Source of the DNA: a virus
Reading direction: 5' to 3' (one strand)
Virus record (IMG/VR): IMGVR_UViG_3300018057_000020
Span: 1 to 43,276 of that record
DNA length: 43,276 nucleotides
The notes below the pieces were generated by a model, which saw only the letters and a list, made by a program, of their open reading frames with translations, was not told the origin of the DNA and ran no database searches. Below, one piece after another: positions 27,124 through 42,864 of this stretch. A program made the translations under genes and the position numbers. Each line of letters begins with the position of its first letter. Position 1 is the stretch's first letter.

Positions 27124-28221
27124 TCACCGCCTTTCATCTAGTGGACTCCAGAAACTCTGCTCGAAGTTGCTCTCCAGGAACTCTTCCCTCAAGCCTGGGG
27201 GCGCTTGGCAGATAGGCCGATAGGGGCAACCGCCATAGTTTGAACAGCTTCGCGTCCGCTTCGGCCACCAGTCCCAGCCGCCCTGGAAGGAGACTAGGTT
27301 AAGCACCTTACCTCTGACTTCTCTCTCCCACTCTTCCAAATCCCACGGATTCAGATCTATCGTCTCACGATTCACCACTTCCCGTGGCACTGGCTCAGGA
27401 TCGCCCTTCTTTCTTCTCTTGCCCTTAACTTGGCCGTCCACGGAGCTTTTGTAAATGCCCGCCATAGTAAGAAGGCCCCGTCTAATGTCCTGATGAAAGA
27501 GGGAGCGAGCCGCATAGACATAGCCTGTAACTTGGGCGTTTGGGTTCGCCACAAAGAGCCAAGGGCTAGTAGAAGTCTTCTCTTCATCAATAACATACTG
27601 CTGCGCGCCTCCCTTCTCTCTCCCAAAGCCATCTATGAAGCCAGCATAGCGGTAAGGGCAGCCGGGAATGTCTAACACGAACTGCTGCTCTCCTCCGAGC
27701 CAGTCCCAGTCTTCATTCTGGAAGAGCCGTGCGCGGGCAGTCAAGAGTTCATGTCCTTTAGCATACGTTCTAACCTCTCTCGACTCGTCTTCGTCCTCTC
27801 CTCCATCTCCTTCATCCACATAGCTCGCATAAGCTGCATTGAAGGCTTCGAGGGCGGCAGGAAGGCTTTTACCACTCTTATACCACACGCCCACACCTTC
27901 GTGATAGGCTTTACCAAAGTCCAGCGCACGGTGTTCTCCTCTCGTCCTGGCTCCATAAGCAAAGGCATACTGGCCCTTCCTGGGGCACTCATCGAGAGTA
28001 CCCAGGATGGTTGCATCGACAACTTCAATCAGTCTCTTCTTCATACTTCCCCTCCTGGGGCACTCATCGAGAGTACCCAGGATGGTTGCATCGACAACGT
28101 CCGTCAGAAGCTCATGGCCATCAAATTCAAACGCTTCAACTCCACTCCTTACAGCTTGATTATAGGCCGCCCGGAGTGCCTTTGCCTTCTCTCTCGTCAT
28201 CTCCAACATTTCCCCGGCCAT
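27124..28221 (-). CDS. Cas4/RecB-like PD-(D/E)XK nuclease with Fe-S cysteines
   Basis: This gene encodes 365 residues. The first cluster cysteine lies in DECPRKGQYAF (C79), followed by the RecB-family AYHEGV histidine (H107). The nuclease core follows: YAGFIDGFG (D197) and VIDEEKTS (E214, K215). The C-terminal CSNYGGCPYRPIC brings C326, C332 and C338, completing a 4-Cys iron-sulphur set as in Cas4 and AddB. It would act as an exonuclease in replication or recombination. Residues 42-66 repeat almost exactly as 67-91: a 46-base perfect repeat at a 75-base interval duplicated the segment VVDATILGTLDECPR in frame. The upstream copy puts a second CPR (C54) before the real one. No CRISPR locus is present. 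Confidence 0.8.
   Translation of the reverse strand: MAGEMLEMTREKAKALRAAYNQAVRSGVEAFEFDGHELLTDVVDATILGTLDECPRRGSMKKRLIEVVDATILGTLDECPRKGQYAFAYGARTRGEHRALDFGKAYHEGVGVWYKSGKSLPAALEAFNAAYASYVDEGDGGEDEDESREVRTYAKGHELLTARARLFQNEDWDWLGGEQQFVLDIPGCPYRYAGFIDGFGREKGGAQQYVIDEEKTSTSPWLFVANPNAQVTGYVYAARSLFHQDIRRGLLTMAGIYKSSVDGQVKGKRRKKGDPEPVPREVVNRETIDLNPWDLEEWEREVRGKVLNLVSFQGGWDWWPKRTRSCSNYGGCPYRPICQAPPGLREEFLESNFEQSFWSPLDERR
27978..28023. repeat. 46-bp direct repeat, copy 1 (within Cas4-like gene)
   Basis: This stretch is identical to 28053-28098, 75 bases away, so the repeat keeps the reading frame (25 codons). This copy encodes the cysteine motif that continues into the nuclease. The complete identity means the duplication is recent, or that the assembly joined two strain variants. 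Confidence 0.9.
28053..28098. repeat. 46-bp direct repeat, copy 2 (within Cas4-like gene)
   Basis: This is the second identical copy, nearer the gene start. Between the copies an AGGGGAAGT followed by ATG (reverse strand) could serve as an internal start at codon 60, giving a protein without the first copy. Confidence 0.9.
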
Positions 28222-29894: not shown

Positions 29895-31448
29895 TTACTT
29901 TTCTTCGTCAAGAGACTGTACTAATTCCTCAATACAAGGAACATTTATGCTCCCGGCTGTTAGGGCCTTCAACTTAGCAAGTGTAACTACGCCTTTTCCG
30001 GCCGCTTTCTCTGTGATAGCGCCCGCGACGAGCATCTTGAAGTGATCGTCCAGCGTAACCGCCCGGCCCTTCGGTGCGGTCATTAGCTCGAACTGACTTC
30101 GAAGACCTTTGAGTGCTTGCACAATGTCCTCGCTACGGATTTCTGTGCTTGCTCCACCTGTACGGTCAAGCGCATAAAGGAGCGCTGAGTTGCATCCTTC
30201 GGCAACAAACGCTGGGGTGTAACCCGAAGACGCTTCCATAAGGGCTTCAAGGTCAAGCTCACCTTTGAGTGCATTTCCAACATACCCCCTTATTAGATGG
30301 TCAATCATCTGCCGGTCGATGTTTCCAAGTTCGATGACCTTGTCAATCCGGCCTGGCCTCATCATAGCTTGTTCAATCTGATCCACATGATTCGTGGTCA
30401 GAATCACCATAACCTTCGAAGACTTGGAAAGAAGGCCGTCAACGGTGTTGAGAATCTGGTTCAAGTTCGCATCTCGACCCTGATTCGTAACGTGATCGAT
30501 GTCTTCAAAGAAGACTACGCAAGGCGTGTAGAGCTTCGCAAGCTCTAGGGCTTTGACGATGTCGTCGCCCGGCAGGACGTTGATGAATGTCCATCCATTC
30601 TTCACTGCTAGGTTCGCTGTCTTCAGTGCCGTAAGTGTCTTTCCTGTCCCAAATCGCCCATGAAGTAGAACTGTTCTCTTCAATGGTACTCCCATCTTTT
30701 CTACGGCCTCTGTTGATTCCAGGAGTCGGAAGACGTTGGCATGGAGGGCAGCACGTTCGACCTCTGCATAAGCAATACGATGCAGAGGGAATCCGTTCAA
30801 GTTGATGAATTCCCATCGACTATTGATGGCTTTACCACGGAAAATGCTGTGGGCCTTCATTCGATCCAACGTCCTCCGCTCGATTTCCTCAACGATGGAC
30901 TGAAACTTCTTGGGATATTCTGCAATAATAAGCAGAGTATTCGGGACTTTGTTTTCGTCTTCGAAGCCTACGCGGAGCTTCACTGGCAGCCCGGGGATAA
31001 CTATGTTCCCATAAGGAACCGTCTCCTGCTCCGTGTAGCTTGTCTTAATTGTTCGAGTTTCTCCTGGGACGGTCATTTCTCCGAAGAACGTAAAGACCGT
31101 CATAGATTCTCCAAGGACATGGCCAAACGTCTCTTGCATCGCATGTGCGAAGTTCCAGAGACAGTCTGCTGGATGGCCCTTGATCTGAATAACCTTCTTC
31201 TGCGGCTCATCCATCTCCTTGATGCGCTTCTTCAGGACTTCAATCGCATCGGCATCATTCATGTAGGTCGGTATGATAAGCTGTGTCCCTTCCCTCTTGA
31301 TGGAGTTCCCGGCAGAGTGCTGCTTCTCAAGCTCCGTCGCCAGCTTCTCCATTGCCACTGTTACGGCGTCTTTTTTCTGAGCCTTTGGAGAGGGCTTTCC
31401 CTCTTCCTCAAGCTCTTCTTCTTTTATTCCCACTTCTTTTATTCCCAC
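29895..31448 (-). CDS. BCS1/Cdc48-like AAA+ ATPase
   Basis: This gene encodes 517 residues. Residues 1-200 form a non-catalytic N-terminal region with a beta-rich segment (about 110-180). The AAA module has Walker A GRFGTGKT (264-271), Walker B VVFFEDID (311-318), sensor 1 TTN (351-353) and RPGRID (364-369) with the arginine-finger region. The Walker B order ED, not DE, is as in BCS1. A C-terminal helical lid follows. AAA+ proteins of this group remodel or unfold proteins in hexamers. In a phage early operon it may act on replication or host complexes. The gene starts at GTG (31448) in a 15-base tandem repeat that contains a second GTG start. Confidence 0.8.
   Translation of the reverse strand: MGIKEVGIKEEELEEEGKPSPKAQKKDAVTVAMEKLATELEKQHSAGNSIKREGTQLIIPTYMNDADAIEVLKKRIKEMDEPQKKVIQIKGHPADCLWNFAHAMQETFGHVLGESMTVFTFFGEMTVPGETRTIKTSYTEQETVPYGNIVIPGLPVKLRVGFEDENKVPNTLLIIAEYPKKFQSIVEEIERRTLDRMKAHSIFRGKAINSRWEFINLNGFPLHRIAYAEVERAALHANVFRLLESTEAVEKMGVPLKRTVLLHGRFGTGKTLTALKTANLAVKNGWTFINVLPGDDIVKALELAKLYTPCVVFFEDIDHVTNQGRDANLNQILNTVDGLLSKSSKVMVILTTNHVDQIEQAMMRPGRIDKVIELGNIDRQMIDHLIRGYVGNALKGELDLEALMEASSGYTPAFVAEGCNSALLYALDRTGGASTEIRSEDIVQALKGLRSQFELMTAPKGRAVTLDDHFKMLVAGAITEKAAGKGVVTLAKLKALTAGSINVPCIEELVQSLDEEK
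31418..31447. repeat. 15-bp perfect tandem duplication at the AAA+ gene start
   Basis: Two adjacent identical 15-base units (31418-31432 and 31433-31447) encode GIKEV/GIKEE. Each carries a GTG in frame, so the start codon region of the ATPase is doubled. This is likely a slippage product. Confidence 0.8.
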
Positions 31449-31473: not shown

Positions 31474-31860
31474 TTACGCATTCGCCTCTAGCGTATTTAC
31501 ATGGGCGTCTGCTTTAGCTATCTCAAATTCAAGCATTGCGATAAAGGAATCTACTTCGTCCAGACTATTTAGGACTTTGTAGCCAATCGGAAATAGCCTA
31601 TCAGGCGGTGCGCCTTCTTCGTGTGCAAACATGAAACCCGCATATAAGCCTGTGGGTACGCCCAAGGTGCCTCCATCCTTCAATACCGTGATGACAAGTG
31701 TTTCACCGAGACTCGGTGCAGGGATTACCCTGATTTTGAGAATACTGACATTGTGAAGCTGTCCCTCTGGAGTCTTCATGAAATTCCGCAAGAGCTTCTC
31801 TACTTCTTCTGCGAGAATCTCCGGCGTAACGACGTTTACGTTCACTTCTTCACTCTTCAT
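31474..31860 (-). CDS. Hypothetical protein
   Basis: This gene encodes 128 residues with GGAGGAGAAG before the ATG. A helical start (PEILAEEVEKLLRNFM) precedes a beta-rich centre (LKIRVIPAPSLGETLVITVL) and a C-terminal helix. No domain is recognised. It lies just upstream of the AAA+ ATPase and could be its partner, by position only. Confidence 0.55.
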   Translation of the reverse strand: MKSEEVNVNVVTPEILAEEVEKLLRNFMKTPEGQLHNVSILKIRVIPAPSLGETLVITVLKDGGTLGVPTGLYAGFMFAHEEGAPPDRLFPIGYKVLNSLDEVDSFIAMLEFEIAKADAHVNTLEANA

Positions 31861-31957
31861 CTTCTCCTCCTTTTTTCTCCGACTTCTCCCGCACTAAAAG
31901 TGCGTGGAGTCCAAATGCTGCAAAGAACACTAGCACGACCAATCCCAGCATCTCCAC
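31850..31957 (-). CDS. Tiny single-TM protein
   Basis: This 35-codon frame begins at a GTG with AGGAG 8 bases upstream and overlaps the next start. The product has one hydrophobic helix (about residues 3-21, MLGLVVLVFFAAFGLHALLV) and a charged C-terminus (REKSEKKGGEDEE). It is a likely inner-membrane miniprotein; the function is unknown. Confidence 0.5.
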   Translation of the reverse strand: MEMLGLVVLVFFAAFGLHALLVREKSEKKGGEDEE

Positions 31958-31968
31958 ATAAATCACTC

Positions 31969-32963: not shown

Positions 32964-33005
32964 AAGACCTCCTTGAGTTGACTTTGGACAACCCTTGTGG
33001 TTTAA

Positions 33006-33036
33006 TAAGGGCGGTCCCGAAGGACAAACGCCCTTA
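33006..33036 (-). ncRNA. Stable nested hairpin with UUCG tetraloop
   Basis: Read leftward, TAAGGGCG pairs with CGCCCTTA, and inside it GTCC-TTCG-GGAC forms a C(UUCG)G tetraloop with a 3-base internal bulge. It lies between the 36-residue TM gene and the 55-residue gene. The short AT-rich tail after it gives only a weak terminator, so it may be an attenuator or a processing site. Confidence 0.55.
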
Positions 33037-33114
33037 CCCATCGCCTATTCTTGAATGGCCCATGCGGGCGGAAGTCAGCTACCCTTCCGTTTCTCCCGCT
33101 TTAAAGGGCCAAGG

Positions 33115-33225
33115 TCATTCAATTACGTAGTAATTCCGCTTGCCTAGAGCAACGAGTGCAAATAAGCAAACGCCCACAACAACGCCCAGTAGAAAAGAAA
33201 TGGAAAGTAATGCTGTATCATACAT
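33115..33225 (-). CDS. Tiny single-TM protein
   Basis: This 36-codon gene has AGAGGAGCGGAG directly before the ATG. The product is nearly all one hydrophobic helix (LLSISFLLGVVVGVCLFALV, residues 6-25) followed by a basic anchor (GKRNYYVIE). The start overlaps the stop of the preceding 48-codon frame. The function is unknown; a membrane-acting early miniprotein is likely. Confidence 0.55.
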   Translation of the reverse strand: MYDTALLSISFLLGVVVGVCLFALVALGKRNYYVIE

Positions 33226-33850: not shown

Positions 33851-33935
33851 CTTGCCCTCCAACTATAGAAGTTTAAACTTCCACCTGTGATACCTTATCA
33901 CCAAATTCCTGAATAAAATCAACAAAAGTCTCTAT

Positions 33936-33947
33936 CTTTATCACAGG
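33936..33947. repeat. 12-mer iteron-like repeat, copy 1
   Basis: CTTTATCACAGG is identical to 33990-34001. Read leftward it is CCTGTGATAAAG, which also resembles an extended -10 element (TG-N-GATAAA), so it may serve promoter or origin. Confidence 0.7.
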
Positions 33948-33989
33948 CTATCCGAGAAAAATCTTTAGTGTTTTCATAGACTTATCGAA

Positions 33990-34001
33990 CTTTATCACAG
34001 G
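33990..34001. repeat. 12-mer iteron-like repeat, copy 2
   Basis: This is the second exact copy of the 12-mer, 54 bases from the first. Read leftward, a TTGACT at 34015-34020 stands 18 bases upstream of the GATAAA within it, making a possible early promoter with the repeat at its -10. Confidence 0.65.
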
Positions 34002-34305
34002 AAAAAAGGGCAAAAGTCAATAAAATCAACTACTTCGAGGATTATTATTACACCCCCGCTATCGGTCAATTTGTGGGTGGATTTCTGGCAACCACTACCG
34101 CTTGTGGTGTGTCAAAAATGCAACACTATTCCTTATATATAAATAAAAATATATTAATAATATTAACTACTTACCTTTTCCCAATGAAATCAAGGACTTA
34201 CATCTGTAGAAAAATAAACTTCAATAGACCGAAAAGTCCTTAGACGACGGTGATAGTGGTGATAAAGTTAAACTCCGCGATATTACAAGCGAAAGGCTCG
34301 TTACG

Positions 34306-34325
34306 TTATCACAAAACGGTGATAA
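34306..34325. promoter_or_regulatory. TTATCAC-N6-GTGATAA palindrome
   Basis: This is a perfect 7-base inverted repeat made of the same element that is scattered through the region. It is the strongest single binding-site candidate for an initiator or repressor and lies 4 bases from the DnaA-like box. Confidence 0.6.
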
Positions 34326-34329
34326 GGTA

Positions 34330-34338
34330 TTATCCACG
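34330..34338 (+). promoter_or_regulatory. DnaA box-like site
   Basis: TTATCCACG differs from the DnaA consensus TTATCCACA by the last base. It is close to the iteron palindrome and about 155 bases from the AT-rich segment. Confidence 0.5.
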
Positions 34339-34352
34339 CCCGCTTGATGAAT

Positions 34353-34376
34353 AAAAAACCCCTGAATGGTCATTCA
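34353..34376 (-). terminator. Rho-independent terminator of the short leftward operon
   Basis: Read leftward, TGAATG-AC-CATTCA is followed by GGGG and six T. It overlaps the end of the 85-residue gene, between that operon and the candidate origin. Confidence 0.45.
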
Positions 34377-34627
34377 TTTTCCAATCGCTCACGGTATGTT
34401 ATATCCCAGTGAAAAGGCTTAGGATATTTAACATCCAGCCCAAGAGCAAGCGAAAGAGCCTGGATCGAATACCAATGCTTCTTCTCTGGCTCTGCCTTCG
34501 GGCTGAAGTCCACAAGCCACCCATCTGGTAACTCCTGGGCGAAGCGCAGGTTTCTCATGCTCACCGGTGCGTTCTTCACCGCAGAAATCAAACAATCCCG
34601 CTTACTTCCCCGAAATGCTTTAATCAT
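34370..34627 (-). CDS. Small hypothetical protein beginning MIKAFRG
   Basis: The ATG at 34627 follows GGGAGG at 9 bases, and it overlaps the stop of a 29-codon membrane peptide (ATGA). The 85-residue product has no recognised domain. The motif WYSIQALSLALGLDVKYPKPFHWDI (in parts, about 54-78) looks like a small alpha/beta fold. Its first seven residues, MIKAFRG, recur in a 9-codon frame 117 bases upstream, which suggests a partial duplication of the gene start. Confidence 0.55.
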   Translation of the reverse strand: MIKAFRGSKRDCLISAVKNAPVSMRNLRFAQELPDGWLVDFSPKAEPEKKHWYSIQALSLALGLDVKYPKPFHWDITYRERLENE

Positions 34628-34713
34628 ACCGGAATCCCTCCCAGGAAGATCAAGCAAGCTGCATAAATCAAGAGACAAACTCCAATGAATCCAAGCACAA
34701 TCCACCAGTTCAT
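34624..34713 (-). CDS. 29-residue transmembrane miniprotein
   Basis: This frame has a strong GGGGGAGGAAG before its ATG and ends in an ATGA overlap with the next gene. The product (starting MNWWIVLGFIG) is essentially one hydrophobic helix with no charged residue. Such uncharged single helices resemble phage membrane peptides and type I toxin-like peptides. The function is unknown. Confidence 0.5.
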   Translation of the reverse strand: MNWWIVLGFIGVCLLIYAACLIFLGGIPV

Positions 34714-34714
34714 A

Positions 34715-34744
34715 CTACTTCCTCCCCCTGAAGGCTTTAATCAT
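34715..34744 (-). CDS. 9-codon mini-ORF repeating MIKAFRG start
   Basis: The ATG overlaps the stop of the preceding TM peptide (ATGA), and the frame ends after nine residues (MIKAFRGRK). Its DNA shares TATGATTAAAGC with the start of the 85-residue gene. It contains the ribosome site of the next TM peptide, so it may be a relay for coupling, or the stub of an old gene copy. Confidence 0.3.
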   Translation of the reverse strand: MIKAFRGRK

Positions 34745-34830
34745 AAGGGCCACCAGAGAACGCGAAGAGTTGCCACAACAGCAACTCCCGCAAATATCGC
34801 AACCAAAACAAGCGCAGTCTTACGATTCAT
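34741..34830 (-). CDS. 29-residue transmembrane miniprotein
   Basis: It begins MNRKTALVLV and contains one hydrophobic helix with an aromatic WW near the end. GGAGAGG precedes the ATG, which overlaps the stop of the 31-residue peptide. The DNA of its middle forms a 7-bp stem (34767-34787). The function is unknown. Confidence 0.5.
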   Translation of the reverse strand: MNRKTALVLVAIFAGVAVVATLRVLWWPL

Positions 34831-34922
34831 AGCTCTACCTCTCCGAAAAGAATCTGCCATGCAAAACCAACAAATCCAATTACGAAGAAAACGATTCCTA
34901 AATCTACAAGTGCATTAAACAT
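34827..34922 (-). CDS. 31-residue transmembrane miniprotein
   Basis: It begins MFNALVDLGIVFFVIGFVGF: an acidic-tipped hydrophobic helix with a GEVEL tail. The ATG lies inside the end of the zinc-ribbon gene and follows GGGAGG at 11 bases. Its stop overlaps the next peptide's ATG. It is the first of three coupled TM peptides. Confidence 0.5.
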   Translation of the reverse strand: MFNALVDLGIVFFVIGFVGFAWQILFGEVEL

Positions 34923-35139
34923 CGCTCAAAATCCTCCCAAGAACATCCTTCGGCTCTGCAACAACTCTCACCGGAACACTTTCCCAATCTGCCCCAATTG
35001 CCAGCAAATACCCATGCTTGCAAATCGGGCATCTCAACGGTGGCTTCTCTGTCCCTGTCTCAAGCCTGCATGAACACGCAGAGCATTTGTATGCTTTCAT
35101 GTATCTCTGCTTTTGTCCTTGCATTGTCTGGTATTGCAT
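34915..35139 (-). CDS. Small zinc-ribbon protein
   Basis: GGGAGG 4 bases upstream supports the ATG at 35139 over the GTG/ATG choices further out. The 74-residue product has YKCSACSCRLE and RCPICKHG, two CxxC pairs of a rubredoxin-like zinc ribbon. It may be a small regulator or adaptor. A perfect GCTGGG/CCCAGC hairpin (35150-35166) lies right before its ribosome site and could control translation. Confidence 0.6.
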   Translation of the reverse strand: MQYQTMQGQKQRYMKAYKCSACSCRLETGTEKPPLRCPICKHGYLLAIGADWESVPVRVVAEPKDVLGRILSDV

Positions 35140-35200: not shown

Positions 35201-35434
35201 CTAAAGGATTTTGAGATACAAAGCTCGATTGTCATCACACATCTTGCGCAGGCTTTCATCTGCGAAGACATCCTCCGCCGGTCTAAGATACATCAGAAAC
35301 TCTTGCATACTGCCATACAACAGCATATTCTGGAAAATCCGTACCGCTGCCGATTTTCGATACGCCATCGCACTCAGGCGTATATACTTTCCGTTCGCTT
35401 TGATGAAGATGCTGTATGTTCTGGATTCTTGCAT
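35201..35434 (-). CDS. Small hypothetical protein, first gene of the short leftward operon
   Basis: This gene encodes 77 residues with GGAGGG 7 bases before the ATG. It starts with a strand pair (RTYSIFIKANGKYIRLS) and continues as helices (SAAVRIFQNMLLYG). It is promoter-proximal to the leftward promoter at 35593-35620. A 5' leader hairpin (GGGTGG/CCACCC, 35467-35482) precedes it. No family is recognised. Confidence 0.5.
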   Translation of the reverse strand: MQESRTYSIFIKANGKYIRLSAMAYRKSAAVRIFQNMLLYGSMQEFLMYLRPAEDVFADESLRKMCDDNRALYLKIL

Positions 35435-41513: not shown

Positions 41514-41987
41514 ATGAAAAGGTTACTTTCGTTAGCGGTCCTATTAAGTATGTTGGTGTTGCCCCTGTGGGGTTGGGCTAGCTATACGGAAGGGACCAAG
41601 AAGCTCTGCATCGGGACTGCGAATATCTGTGTGACCCTGCCAGAGAAGGCTCCAGATTTTAATAAGTTTGAAGCGAATGTGCTCGGCTCAAAGAGATTCG
41701 AGAATGGAAATGCAGTGCAGGTGATGGAGTTGATGAATGAAGATGCTACCGTGGATGTCCTCGTGCTGGTCGTGATGCTTGAAGAGAAGGTCTCTATTGT
41801 GGCGATTCAAGCATCCTATGCGCCCGAGGGCTTTGCGAAGTTCGATGCAAAGAAAACGCATGTGACAGATAGTTATGAAGACGTGGGATTCACGAAGCAG
41901 GGGAAGCCAACGGGCCTTTTGCTTCCAGTAAAGAAGCTATCCGACTATGATGATTTTTCAAAGTTCCTCGAAGGAAGGAAGATCTGA
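41514..41987 (+). CDS. Exported protein with Sec signal peptide
   Basis: This gene encodes 157 residues. Residues 1-23 are a typical Sec signal (MKRLLSLAVLLSMLVLPLWG then WAS at the cleavage point). The mature part is an alpha/beta domain with a CIGTANIC pair of cysteines that could form a disulphide in the periplasm. GAGGAG precedes the ATG. The gene sits before the holin and endolysin and behind its own promoter-like element. It could exclude related phages, change the host envelope or help lysis. I do not recognise a family. Confidence 0.65.
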   Translation: MKRLLSLAVLLSMLVLPLWGWASYTEGTKKLCIGTANICVTLPEKAPDFNKFEANVLGSKRFENGNAVQVMELMNEDATVDVLVLVVMLEEKVSIVAIQASYAPEGFAKFDAKKTHVTDSYEDVGFTKQGKPTGLLLPVKKLSDYDDFSKFLEGRKI

Positions 41988-42427
41988 TGGGATTTGATCC
42001 GGTCAGTGCTATTAGTGATCTCGTAACTACGGTTGTGGGGAAGATTTTCCCTGACGCCAATAAGAAGCTTGATGTTCAAGAAGCCAAAGATGCGGCCAAG
42101 GCTGCCATTGTCGAGATGGGACAGAAGGGGGAACTTGACCAAGTTCTCGGGCAACTCAATATCAATCTGGAGGAAGCCAAGAGTCAGAACGTCTTCATCG
42201 CTGGCTGGCGGCCCTTCATAGGTTGGGTCTGCGGGGCGGCCTTCGGCTGGCAATACGTTATTGGTCCAATGGTATCTTGGGTTGCAACCTTGATGGGACA
42301 CCCCGTCATTATTCCCAAGATGGATCTGGCTGAGATGATGCCCATTATGGGCGGGATGCTCGGCCTGGGTTCTCTCAGAACCTTTGAGAAGTACACGGAC
42401 ACTAGCAAAAATAGGGACGCGAAATGA
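41987..42427 (+). CDS. Holin, 3-TM gene-transfer-agent type
   Basis: The 146-residue protein resembles the GTA_holin_3TM family. An amphipathic N-terminal region of helices (DVQEAKDAAKAAIVEM) precedes WRPFIGWVCGAAFGWQYVIGP (about 75-95) and further hydrophobic helices (MVSWVATLM, IMGGMLGLGSLR). The GWRPFIGW motif is characteristic. It overlaps the endolysin gene (ATGA), the usual pairing. It would open the inner membrane for the muramidase. Confidence 0.8.
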   Translation: MGFDPVSAISDLVTTVVGKIFPDANKKLDVQEAKDAAKAAIVEMGQKGELDQVLGQLNINLEEAKSQNVFIAGWRPFIGWVCGAAFGWQYVIGPMVSWVATLMGHPVIIPKMDLAEMMPIMGGMLGLGSLRTFEKYTDTSKNRDAK

Positions 42428-42864
42428 AGATTTCTCTAACTGGCCTCTCCCTTGTGAAAGCACAAGAAGGTTGGGTGGATCATGTCTATAAAGATGTTGC
42501 CGGACATGATACCATCGGCTATGGACATCTAGTAAAACTCGGTGAACGGTTCCCGCCGACCATCTTCTATGAGCAAGGGGAGCTACTACTGAAGAGCGAC
42601 CTTGAGTGGGCCGAAGAAGTTGTGACAGCCTCCGTGAAAGTTCCCCTTTCTCAGAATCAGTTCGATGCGCTGGTGGATTTTACCTTCAATGAGGGAGAGG
42701 GGCACTTCAAGGGAAGCACACTTCTGAAGCTCCTTAATGAGAGCAACTACATCGGAGCCTCTGGGGAGTTCAAGAAGTGGGTCTATGCAAACGGAGAAGT
42801 GAATGAAGATTTAGCTGCACGAAGAGAAAAGGAGAGGCAACTCTTCTTAACTGTGGAGGGATGA
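42424..42864 (+). CDS. Endolysin, T4-type muramidase (GH24)
   Basis: This 146-residue lysozyme has the GH24 catalytic layout E15-x8-D24-x5-T30 (QEGWVDHVYKD, then HDTIGYGHL). The central LSQNQFDALVDFTFNEGEG (about 78-96) and the C-terminal R-x-x-ER region are also as in phage lysozymes. No signal peptide or SAR segment is visible, so it relies on the holin. The size (146) is that of P22/T4-type enzymes. Confidence 0.9.
   Translation: MKISLTGLSLVKAQEGWVDHVYKDVAGHDTIGYGHLVKLGERFPPTIFYEQGELLLKSDLEWAEEVVTASVKVPLSQNQFDALVDFTFNEGEGHFKGSTLLKLLNESNYIGASGEFKKWVYANGEVNEDLAARREKERQLFLTVEG

What the first reader, a model, noticed from the sequence alone, without database searches (positions are those of the whole stretch)
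34624..34922. Chain of coupled 29-31 residue membrane peptides with a repeated MIKAFRG start
Three uncharged or weakly charged TM peptides (starts 34922, 34830, 34713) follow each other through ATGA overlaps, with good ribosome sites. A 9-codon frame MIKAFRGRK copies the first residues of the next gene. Such a membrane miniprotein cassette in an early operon may be an inhibitor, exclusion or toxin-like system that gene finders miss.
Basis: partly seen in the sequence, partly recalled or inferred. Interest (0 to 1): 0.7.

Follow-up and report, generated by a model that had tools for sequence, protein, structure and literature searches.

The report
Early phage membrane miniprotein gene chain
An uncultured bacterial virus carries, in what looks like its early operon, three tiny coupled genes for single-helix membrane peptides, two of which look like products of a small tandem duplication; the genes are very probably real but of a kind already seen in other phages, and their exact job is unknown.

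Summary
In a complete 43,276-bp phage genome (123-bp end repeats), the minus strand encodes a coupled chain: zinc-ribbon protein, TM1 (31 aa), TM2 (29 aa), a 9-codon frame MIKAFRGRK, TM3 (29 aa) and an 85-aa protein X starting MIKAFRGSK. All five junctions are overlaps or a 1-nt gap. No chained TM ORFs with ribosome sites arose in 1,000 shuffles, and each TM frame has the best coding score of its six frames. The repeated MIKAFRG head is best explained by a 117-nt tandem duplication of [ribosome site + 29-codon TM gene + start of X]; homology of the TM bodies themselves is weak (p = 0.057). The 9-codon frame, a truncated head of X, bridges a 27-nt gap that should otherwise break translational coupling, and supplies TM3's Shine-Dalgarno. 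No relatives of X or the zinc-ribbon protein were found; the TM peptides match no family. A collinear relative has an unrelated early region but its own TM mini-ORF. Most likely these are early host-membrane takeover or exclusion peptides, comparable to those of phage SPP1. A lysis role is unlikely (holin and endolysin lie elsewhere); a toxin role is untested. New member of a known kind.

The parts
34915..35139 (-). 74-aa zinc-ribbon protein (CxxC...CxxC), first gene of the coupled chain, SD GGGAGG
   Evidence: ORF and RBS; only weak zinc-ribbon-like matches, e.g. RNA polymerase subunit P model E 6e-4, below cut-off
34827..34922 (-). TM1, 31 aa MFNALVDLGIVFFVIGFVGFAWQILFGEVEL, three acidic and no basic residues
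   Evidence: hydropathy 2.31 over 19 residues
34741..34830 (-). TM2, 29 aa MNRKTALVLVAIFAGVAVVATLRVLWWPL, three basic and no acidic residues; first copy of the 117-nt repeat
   Evidence: hydropathy 2.59
34715..34744 (-). 9-codon frame MIKAFRGRK, truncated copy of the head of X; probable relay for translational coupling, its codons form TM3's SD
   Evidence: 22/27 nt identical to head of X; best of 2,593 ATGA pairs
34624..34713 (-). TM3, 29 aa MNWWIVLGFIGVCLLIYAACLIFLGGIPV, no charged residue; second copy of the 117-nt repeat
   Evidence: hydropathy 2.83
34370..34627 (-). X, 85-aa orphan protein MIKAFRGSKRDCLISAVKNAPV..., last gene of the chain
   Evidence: coding score 14.2 bits; no homologue
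34597..34847 (-). 117-nt tandem duplication: [RBS + 29-codon TM gene + head of X] x 2
   Evidence: 51% identity at shift 117 against at most 38% at other shifts
35201..35434 (-). 77-aa ORF upstream in the same direction, 61 nt before the zinc-ribbon gene; probable first gene of the operon
   Evidence: coding score 15.0 bits; gap

Best explanation
This is a translationally coupled block of the phage's early operon that makes three single-pass cytoplasmic-membrane miniproteins and two small soluble proteins. TM2, TM3 and the two MIKAFRG heads arose by a 117-nt tandem duplication of [ribosome site - TM gene - start of X]. The first X copy was left as a 9-codon frame that works as a relay: ribosomes finishing TM2 restart on it at ATGA, stop one base before TM3's ATG, and its codons double as TM3's Shine-Dalgarno. 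The acidic, basic and neutral helices probably act together or in parallel on host inner-membrane proteins soon after infection, as takeover or superinfection-exclusion factors. Shown by sequence: reading frames, overlaps, RBSs, excess over chance, the duplicated head and its spacing. Inferred: translation, membrane insertion, early timing, the relay role and the takeover/exclusion function. Rough separate confidence: real translated genes 0.88; duplication origin 0.8; relay role 0.5; takeover/exclusion role 0.4.
For: Chained TM ORFs with SDs never occur in 1,000 shuffles. TM frames score best of six in each segment. All junctions -8, -4, -4, +1, -4 nt. Head repeat is the best of 2,593 ATGA pairs, and shift 117 stands out in self-comparison. 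Gaps near 20 nt almost abolish reinitiation in E. coli and H. volcanii, and overlaps are enriched in genes for heteromeric complexes (PMC10666635), so the 9-mer is what keeps TM3 coupled. Relatives have unrelated TM mini-ORFs in the same operon position. SPP1 has runs of dispensable early TM mini-ORFs, for which its annotators suggest takeover or exclusion roles (PMC6316719). Holin and endolysin are elsewhere.
Against: No expression data. TM2's coding score is low (1.5 bits). TM2/TM3 body similarity alone is not significant (p = 0.057). No homologue outside the window, so no test of selection. TM3 has a strong SD of its own and may not need a relay. No direct evidence for any target or phenotype.
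Confidence: 0.45

Rival explanations
1. Young, fast-turnover peptides: T-rich stretches of a variable early region readily encode hydrophobic helices, and the TM genes are recent, dispensable and only loosely functional, kept mainly because the overlaps carry translation through to X.
For: T fraction of the TM genes is 0.37-0.42 against 0.23-0.26 for the soluble neighbours. No homologues anywhere searched; the early region is wholly different in the collinear relative. De novo small proteins tend to be hydrophobic and thymine-rich DNA is a reservoir of TM helices (PMC10065794).
Against: Good SDs, precise overlaps and two matching 29-codon lengths suggest maintained genes; shuffles of the same dinucleotide content do not give such chains.
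Confidence: 0.25
2. Membrane-active inhibitors or toxins of host growth (TisB-, Hok- or Ldr-like in manner of action), used to stop host functions or depolarise the membrane.
For: 29-31 aa hydrophobic single helices are the size of type I toxins (own knowledge); random hydrophobic small proteins that insert in the membrane can disrupt proton motive force (PMC10065794, citing Knopp 2019).
Against: No antisense RNA or antitoxin partner was seen; no family match; a lytic phage needs host energy early; TM3 is uncharged, unlike amphipathic pore formers.
Confidence: 0.12
3. Lysis accessory proteins (holin-like, antiholin or lysis-timing peptides).
For: Small TM proteins are typical of lysis control.
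Against: A 3-TM holin (PF11351, E 4e-23) and a phage lysozyme (PF00959, E 1.5e-36) sit together on the other strand at 41987-42864, and the cassette is in the replication-side operon.
Confidence: 0.08
4. Not genes: chance open frames, with X really starting upstream at GTG 34705 and the rest non-coding or an RNA element.
For: A frame continuous with X runs back to GTG 34705 across TM3, and a 77-aa antisense frame covers part of the region.
Against: The X extension scores -4.1 bits and the antisense frame -6.5 bits; 0 of 1,000 shuffles chain even two TM ORFs; no RNA structure signal (z -0.65); no Rfam family here.
Confidence: 0.07

Closest known systems
Early TM mini-ORFs of Bacillus phage SPP1 (sequential ORFs 50.1, 51, 51.1 and others under promoter PE1; PMC6316719)
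   Same: Consecutive short early ORFs with predicted TM segments, dispensable or uncharacterised, poorly conserved, proposed takeover/exclusion role
   Different: No detectable sequence relation was found in the phage family libraries; the duplicated head and relay micro-ORF were not described in the passages read
Membrane superinfection-exclusion proteins of phages (T4 Imm, P22 SieA; PMC11436027, PMC10883804)
   Same: Phage products that act at the host inner membrane; T4 Imm comes from a lytic phage
   Different: Those are larger proteins (own knowledge); no family match and no exclusion phenotype is known here
Termination-reinitiation coupled gene pairs (PMC6728339, PMC10666635)
   Same: 4-nt ATGA overlaps throughout the chain
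   Different: Here a 9-codon duplicated gene head appears to be the coupling element between two genes 27 nt apart
Type I toxin peptides (TisB, Hok, Ldr)
   Same: Length and hydrophobicity (own knowledge)
   Different: No antisense regulator seen, embedded in a multi-gene phage operon, no family match

Membership tests
Early-operon phage membrane miniprotein cluster (the SPP1 PE1 kind) | Consecutive short ORFs with a predicted TM helix and RBS | tested here: met
Early-operon phage membrane miniprotein cluster (the SPP1 PE1 kind) | Position in the early or replication-side operon, apart from lysis genes | tested here: met
   Minus strand with polymerase and primase; lysis genes on the plus strand at 41987-42864. 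Timing itself not testable.
Early-operon phage membrane miniprotein cluster (the SPP1 PE1 kind) | Expression early in infection | not testable with these tools
   no transcript data
Superinfection-exclusion protein | Sequence match to a known exclusion family | tested here: not met
   PHROGs, Pfam, NCBIfam, PADLOC: no significant match
Superinfection-exclusion protein | Blocks entry of a later phage | not testable with these tools
   needs plating assay
Phage holin / lysis cassette | Neighbour of endolysin, or holin family match | tested here: not met
   Holin and endolysin are at 41987-42864; cassette peptides match no holin family
Type I toxin-antitoxin peptide | Known toxin family or antisense RNA partner | tested here: not met
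   No family match, no Rfam match in the cassette; an unknown antisense RNA cannot be excluded
Translationally coupled (termination-reinitiation) genes | Overlaps of 1-4 nt or gaps well under 20 nt | tested here: met
   -8, -4, -4, +1, -4 nt
KdpF-like small membrane subunit | Match to KdpF models | tested here: not met
   no match for TM3

The most novel reading that the evidence does not exclude
A three-component heteromeric membrane complex of acidic, basic and neutral single helices of about 30 aa each, made in fixed proportion through a duplicated micro-ORF that serves purely as a translational relay, and acting on host membrane proteins early in infection.
Probability: 0.12. Interest if true: 0.6.

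Novelty: new member of a known kind. Interest (0 to 1): 0.3.

Why it matters
It is a clean example of the small overlapping membrane genes that phage annotation tends to drop, and it gives a testable model for how a tandem duplication can leave behind a 9-codon relay ORF that keeps a coupled operon coupled. The sequences are orphans, so they add to the dark matter of phage early regions rather than define a new system.

Tried and rejected
Homologues: X against viral contigs and genome contigs, zinc-ribbon protein against viral contigs: none. X and the zinc ribbon by tblastn against phage records: none, apart from an E = 3 chance hit for the zinc ribbon. The AAA ATPase as bait found nothing. 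A degenerate DNA pattern for MIKAFRGxK found 7 contigs: six share one identical stretch that hits a stop after MIKAFRGLKR, one encodes MIKAFSG...; none resembles X or the cassette. Terminase as bait gave one near-identical contig that stops at 35,405, short of the cassette, one collinear 56% relative, and distant ones; none in genome contigs. Structured RNA: rejected. Structure prediction of X without relatives was poor (pLDDT 47) and was not used. TM1 as a third copy of the repeat: rejected, 30-35% identity and 92-nt rather than 117-nt spacing. Tandem Repeats Finder does not report the 117-nt repeat, as expected for about 51% identity. KdpF-like resemblance of TM3: no model match. The 50-aa frame after X (34221-34373) was rejected as a gene: -13.7 bits.

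Full report
Setting. The window is a complete phage genome with a 123-bp direct terminal repeat; a second contig (L002) matches it from 35,405 to the end and wraps into its start at 99.99-100% identity. Terminase subunits, portal, holin and endolysin are on the plus strand; DNA polymerase, primase, a PD-(D/E)XK nuclease and AAA proteins are on the minus strand. The cassette lies on the minus strand close to the divergent region in front of the terminase genes, the position of an early operon. Early timing is an inference.

Observation. All three peptides exist at the stated coordinates. The junctions are zinc-ribbon/TM1 -8 nt, TM1/TM2 -4, TM2/9-mer -4, 9-mer/TM3 +1 and TM3/X -4. The wording that the three peptides follow each other through ATGA overlaps is therefore slightly off: TM2 and TM3 are 27 nt apart, and the 9-codon frame fills that gap. 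Shine-Dalgarno-like sequences are strong at TM1, TM2, TM3 and X, and weak at the 9-mer.

More than chance. A genome-wide scan for ATG-started, SD-preceded, hydrophobic ORFs of 20-60 aa finds five, four of them at 33.1-34.9 kb and three in this chain. In 1,000 dinucleotide-preserving shuffles the mean is 0.28, the maximum 3, and no two are ever chained. A codon model trained on 35 larger genes gives the TM frame the best score of six in each segment (7.0, 1.5 and 3.4 bits): good for TM1, moderate for TM3, weak for TM2. The GTG extension of X and the antisense ORF score negative. The RNA is not unusually structured (z -0.65).

The repeat. The 27 nt of the 9-mer and the head of X agree at 22 positions, with one amino-acid difference in nine. 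Among 2,593 pairs of ATGA sites within 1 kb this is the best (18/23 beyond ATGA; per-pair p 1.3e-7; next best 15/23). Each head is preceded, at exactly 86 nt, by the ATG of a 29-codon TM ORF starting ATGAA with a purine-rich RBS. Self-comparison at shift 117 gives 51% over 134 nt, against at most 38% at other shifts. The TM bodies alone give 42%, not significant against codon shuffles of codons 3-28 (p = 0.057); the likeness sits in the first 36 nt (21/36) rather than the last 50 (15/50). I take tandem duplication of [RBS - TM - head of X] as the best explanation; the head and the spacing are the strong part, the TM bodies the weak part. Tandem Repeats Finder is not sensitive to it.

Working model. 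Gaps of about 20 nt almost abolish termination-reinitiation in E. coli and H. [quoted passage not shown] The 9-mer would restore coupling across the 27-nt TM2-TM3 gap, and its codons AGG GGG AGG form TM3's SD. TM1 has three acidic and no basic residues, TM2 three basic and no acidic, TM3 none. Joint action as a small membrane complex fits but is inference.

Comparative evidence. No relative of X or of the zinc-ribbon protein was found in the collections available, and neither these nor the TM peptides have a family match above cut-off. The collinear relative IMGVR_UViG_3300044798_000207 (about 57% TerL identity; homologous polymerase, primase, tail and holin genes) has no homologue of window genes between about 28.2 and 35.5 kb, apart from one 35-residue match in the AAA region (E 0.002). 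It has its own 33-aa TM ORF with SD (L003:5384-5485) beside an unrelated zinc-ribbon ORF. Podoviridae sp. ctLwi270 (MW202554.1) has a 48-aa TM ORF (L014:5244-5390) overlapping both annotated neighbours but itself not annotated. So the kind of gene recurs while the sequence does not. This resembles the early units of phage SPP1, where sequential short ORFs 50.1, 51 and 51.1 have TM segments and the annotators suggest takeover or exclusion roles for such early genes (PMC6316719).

Verdict. Very probably real, ordinary in kind, with an attractive duplication/relay detail. Host-membrane takeover or exclusion is the most likely role, unproven; young loosely functional peptides are the main rival. 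Interest 0.3.

Noticed in passing
32977-33045 (-): Twister-P5 self-cleaving ribozyme match, 39.1 bits against a gathering score of 37.6, inside the early minus-strand operon.
   Followed up: partly
33880-34340: Non-coding, AT-rich stretch after X with several copies of (G)GTGATAA/TTATCAC in both orientations, including an inverted pair at 34302-34329 and a 13-nt perfect inverted pair 33890/34318; looks like operators or replication iterons.
   Followed up: partly
33115-33225 (-) and 31850-31966 (-): Two more short single-TM ORFs (36 and 38 aa) in the same early region; the first has a good SD and scored in the genome-wide scan.
   Followed up: partly
L014:5244-5390 (-), MW202554.1: Unannotated 48-aa TM ORF with SD TGGAGG that fits between two annotated genes with short overlaps in Podoviridae sp. 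ctLwi270.
   Followed up: partly
29895-31448 (-): 517-aa AAA ATPase (PF00004, E 3e-18) in the early region, with nSTAND-like secondary matches, without a full-length relative in the collinear phage.
   Followed up: no
27124-28221 (-): PD-(D/E)XK nuclease ORF whose N-terminus carries the stretch VVDATILGTLDECPR twice, a small in-frame duplication.
   Followed up: no
L007-L011, L013: Six contigs share an identical stretch encoding MIKAFRGLKR followed by a stop, found only through the degenerate pattern; apparently unrelated.
   Followed up: partly
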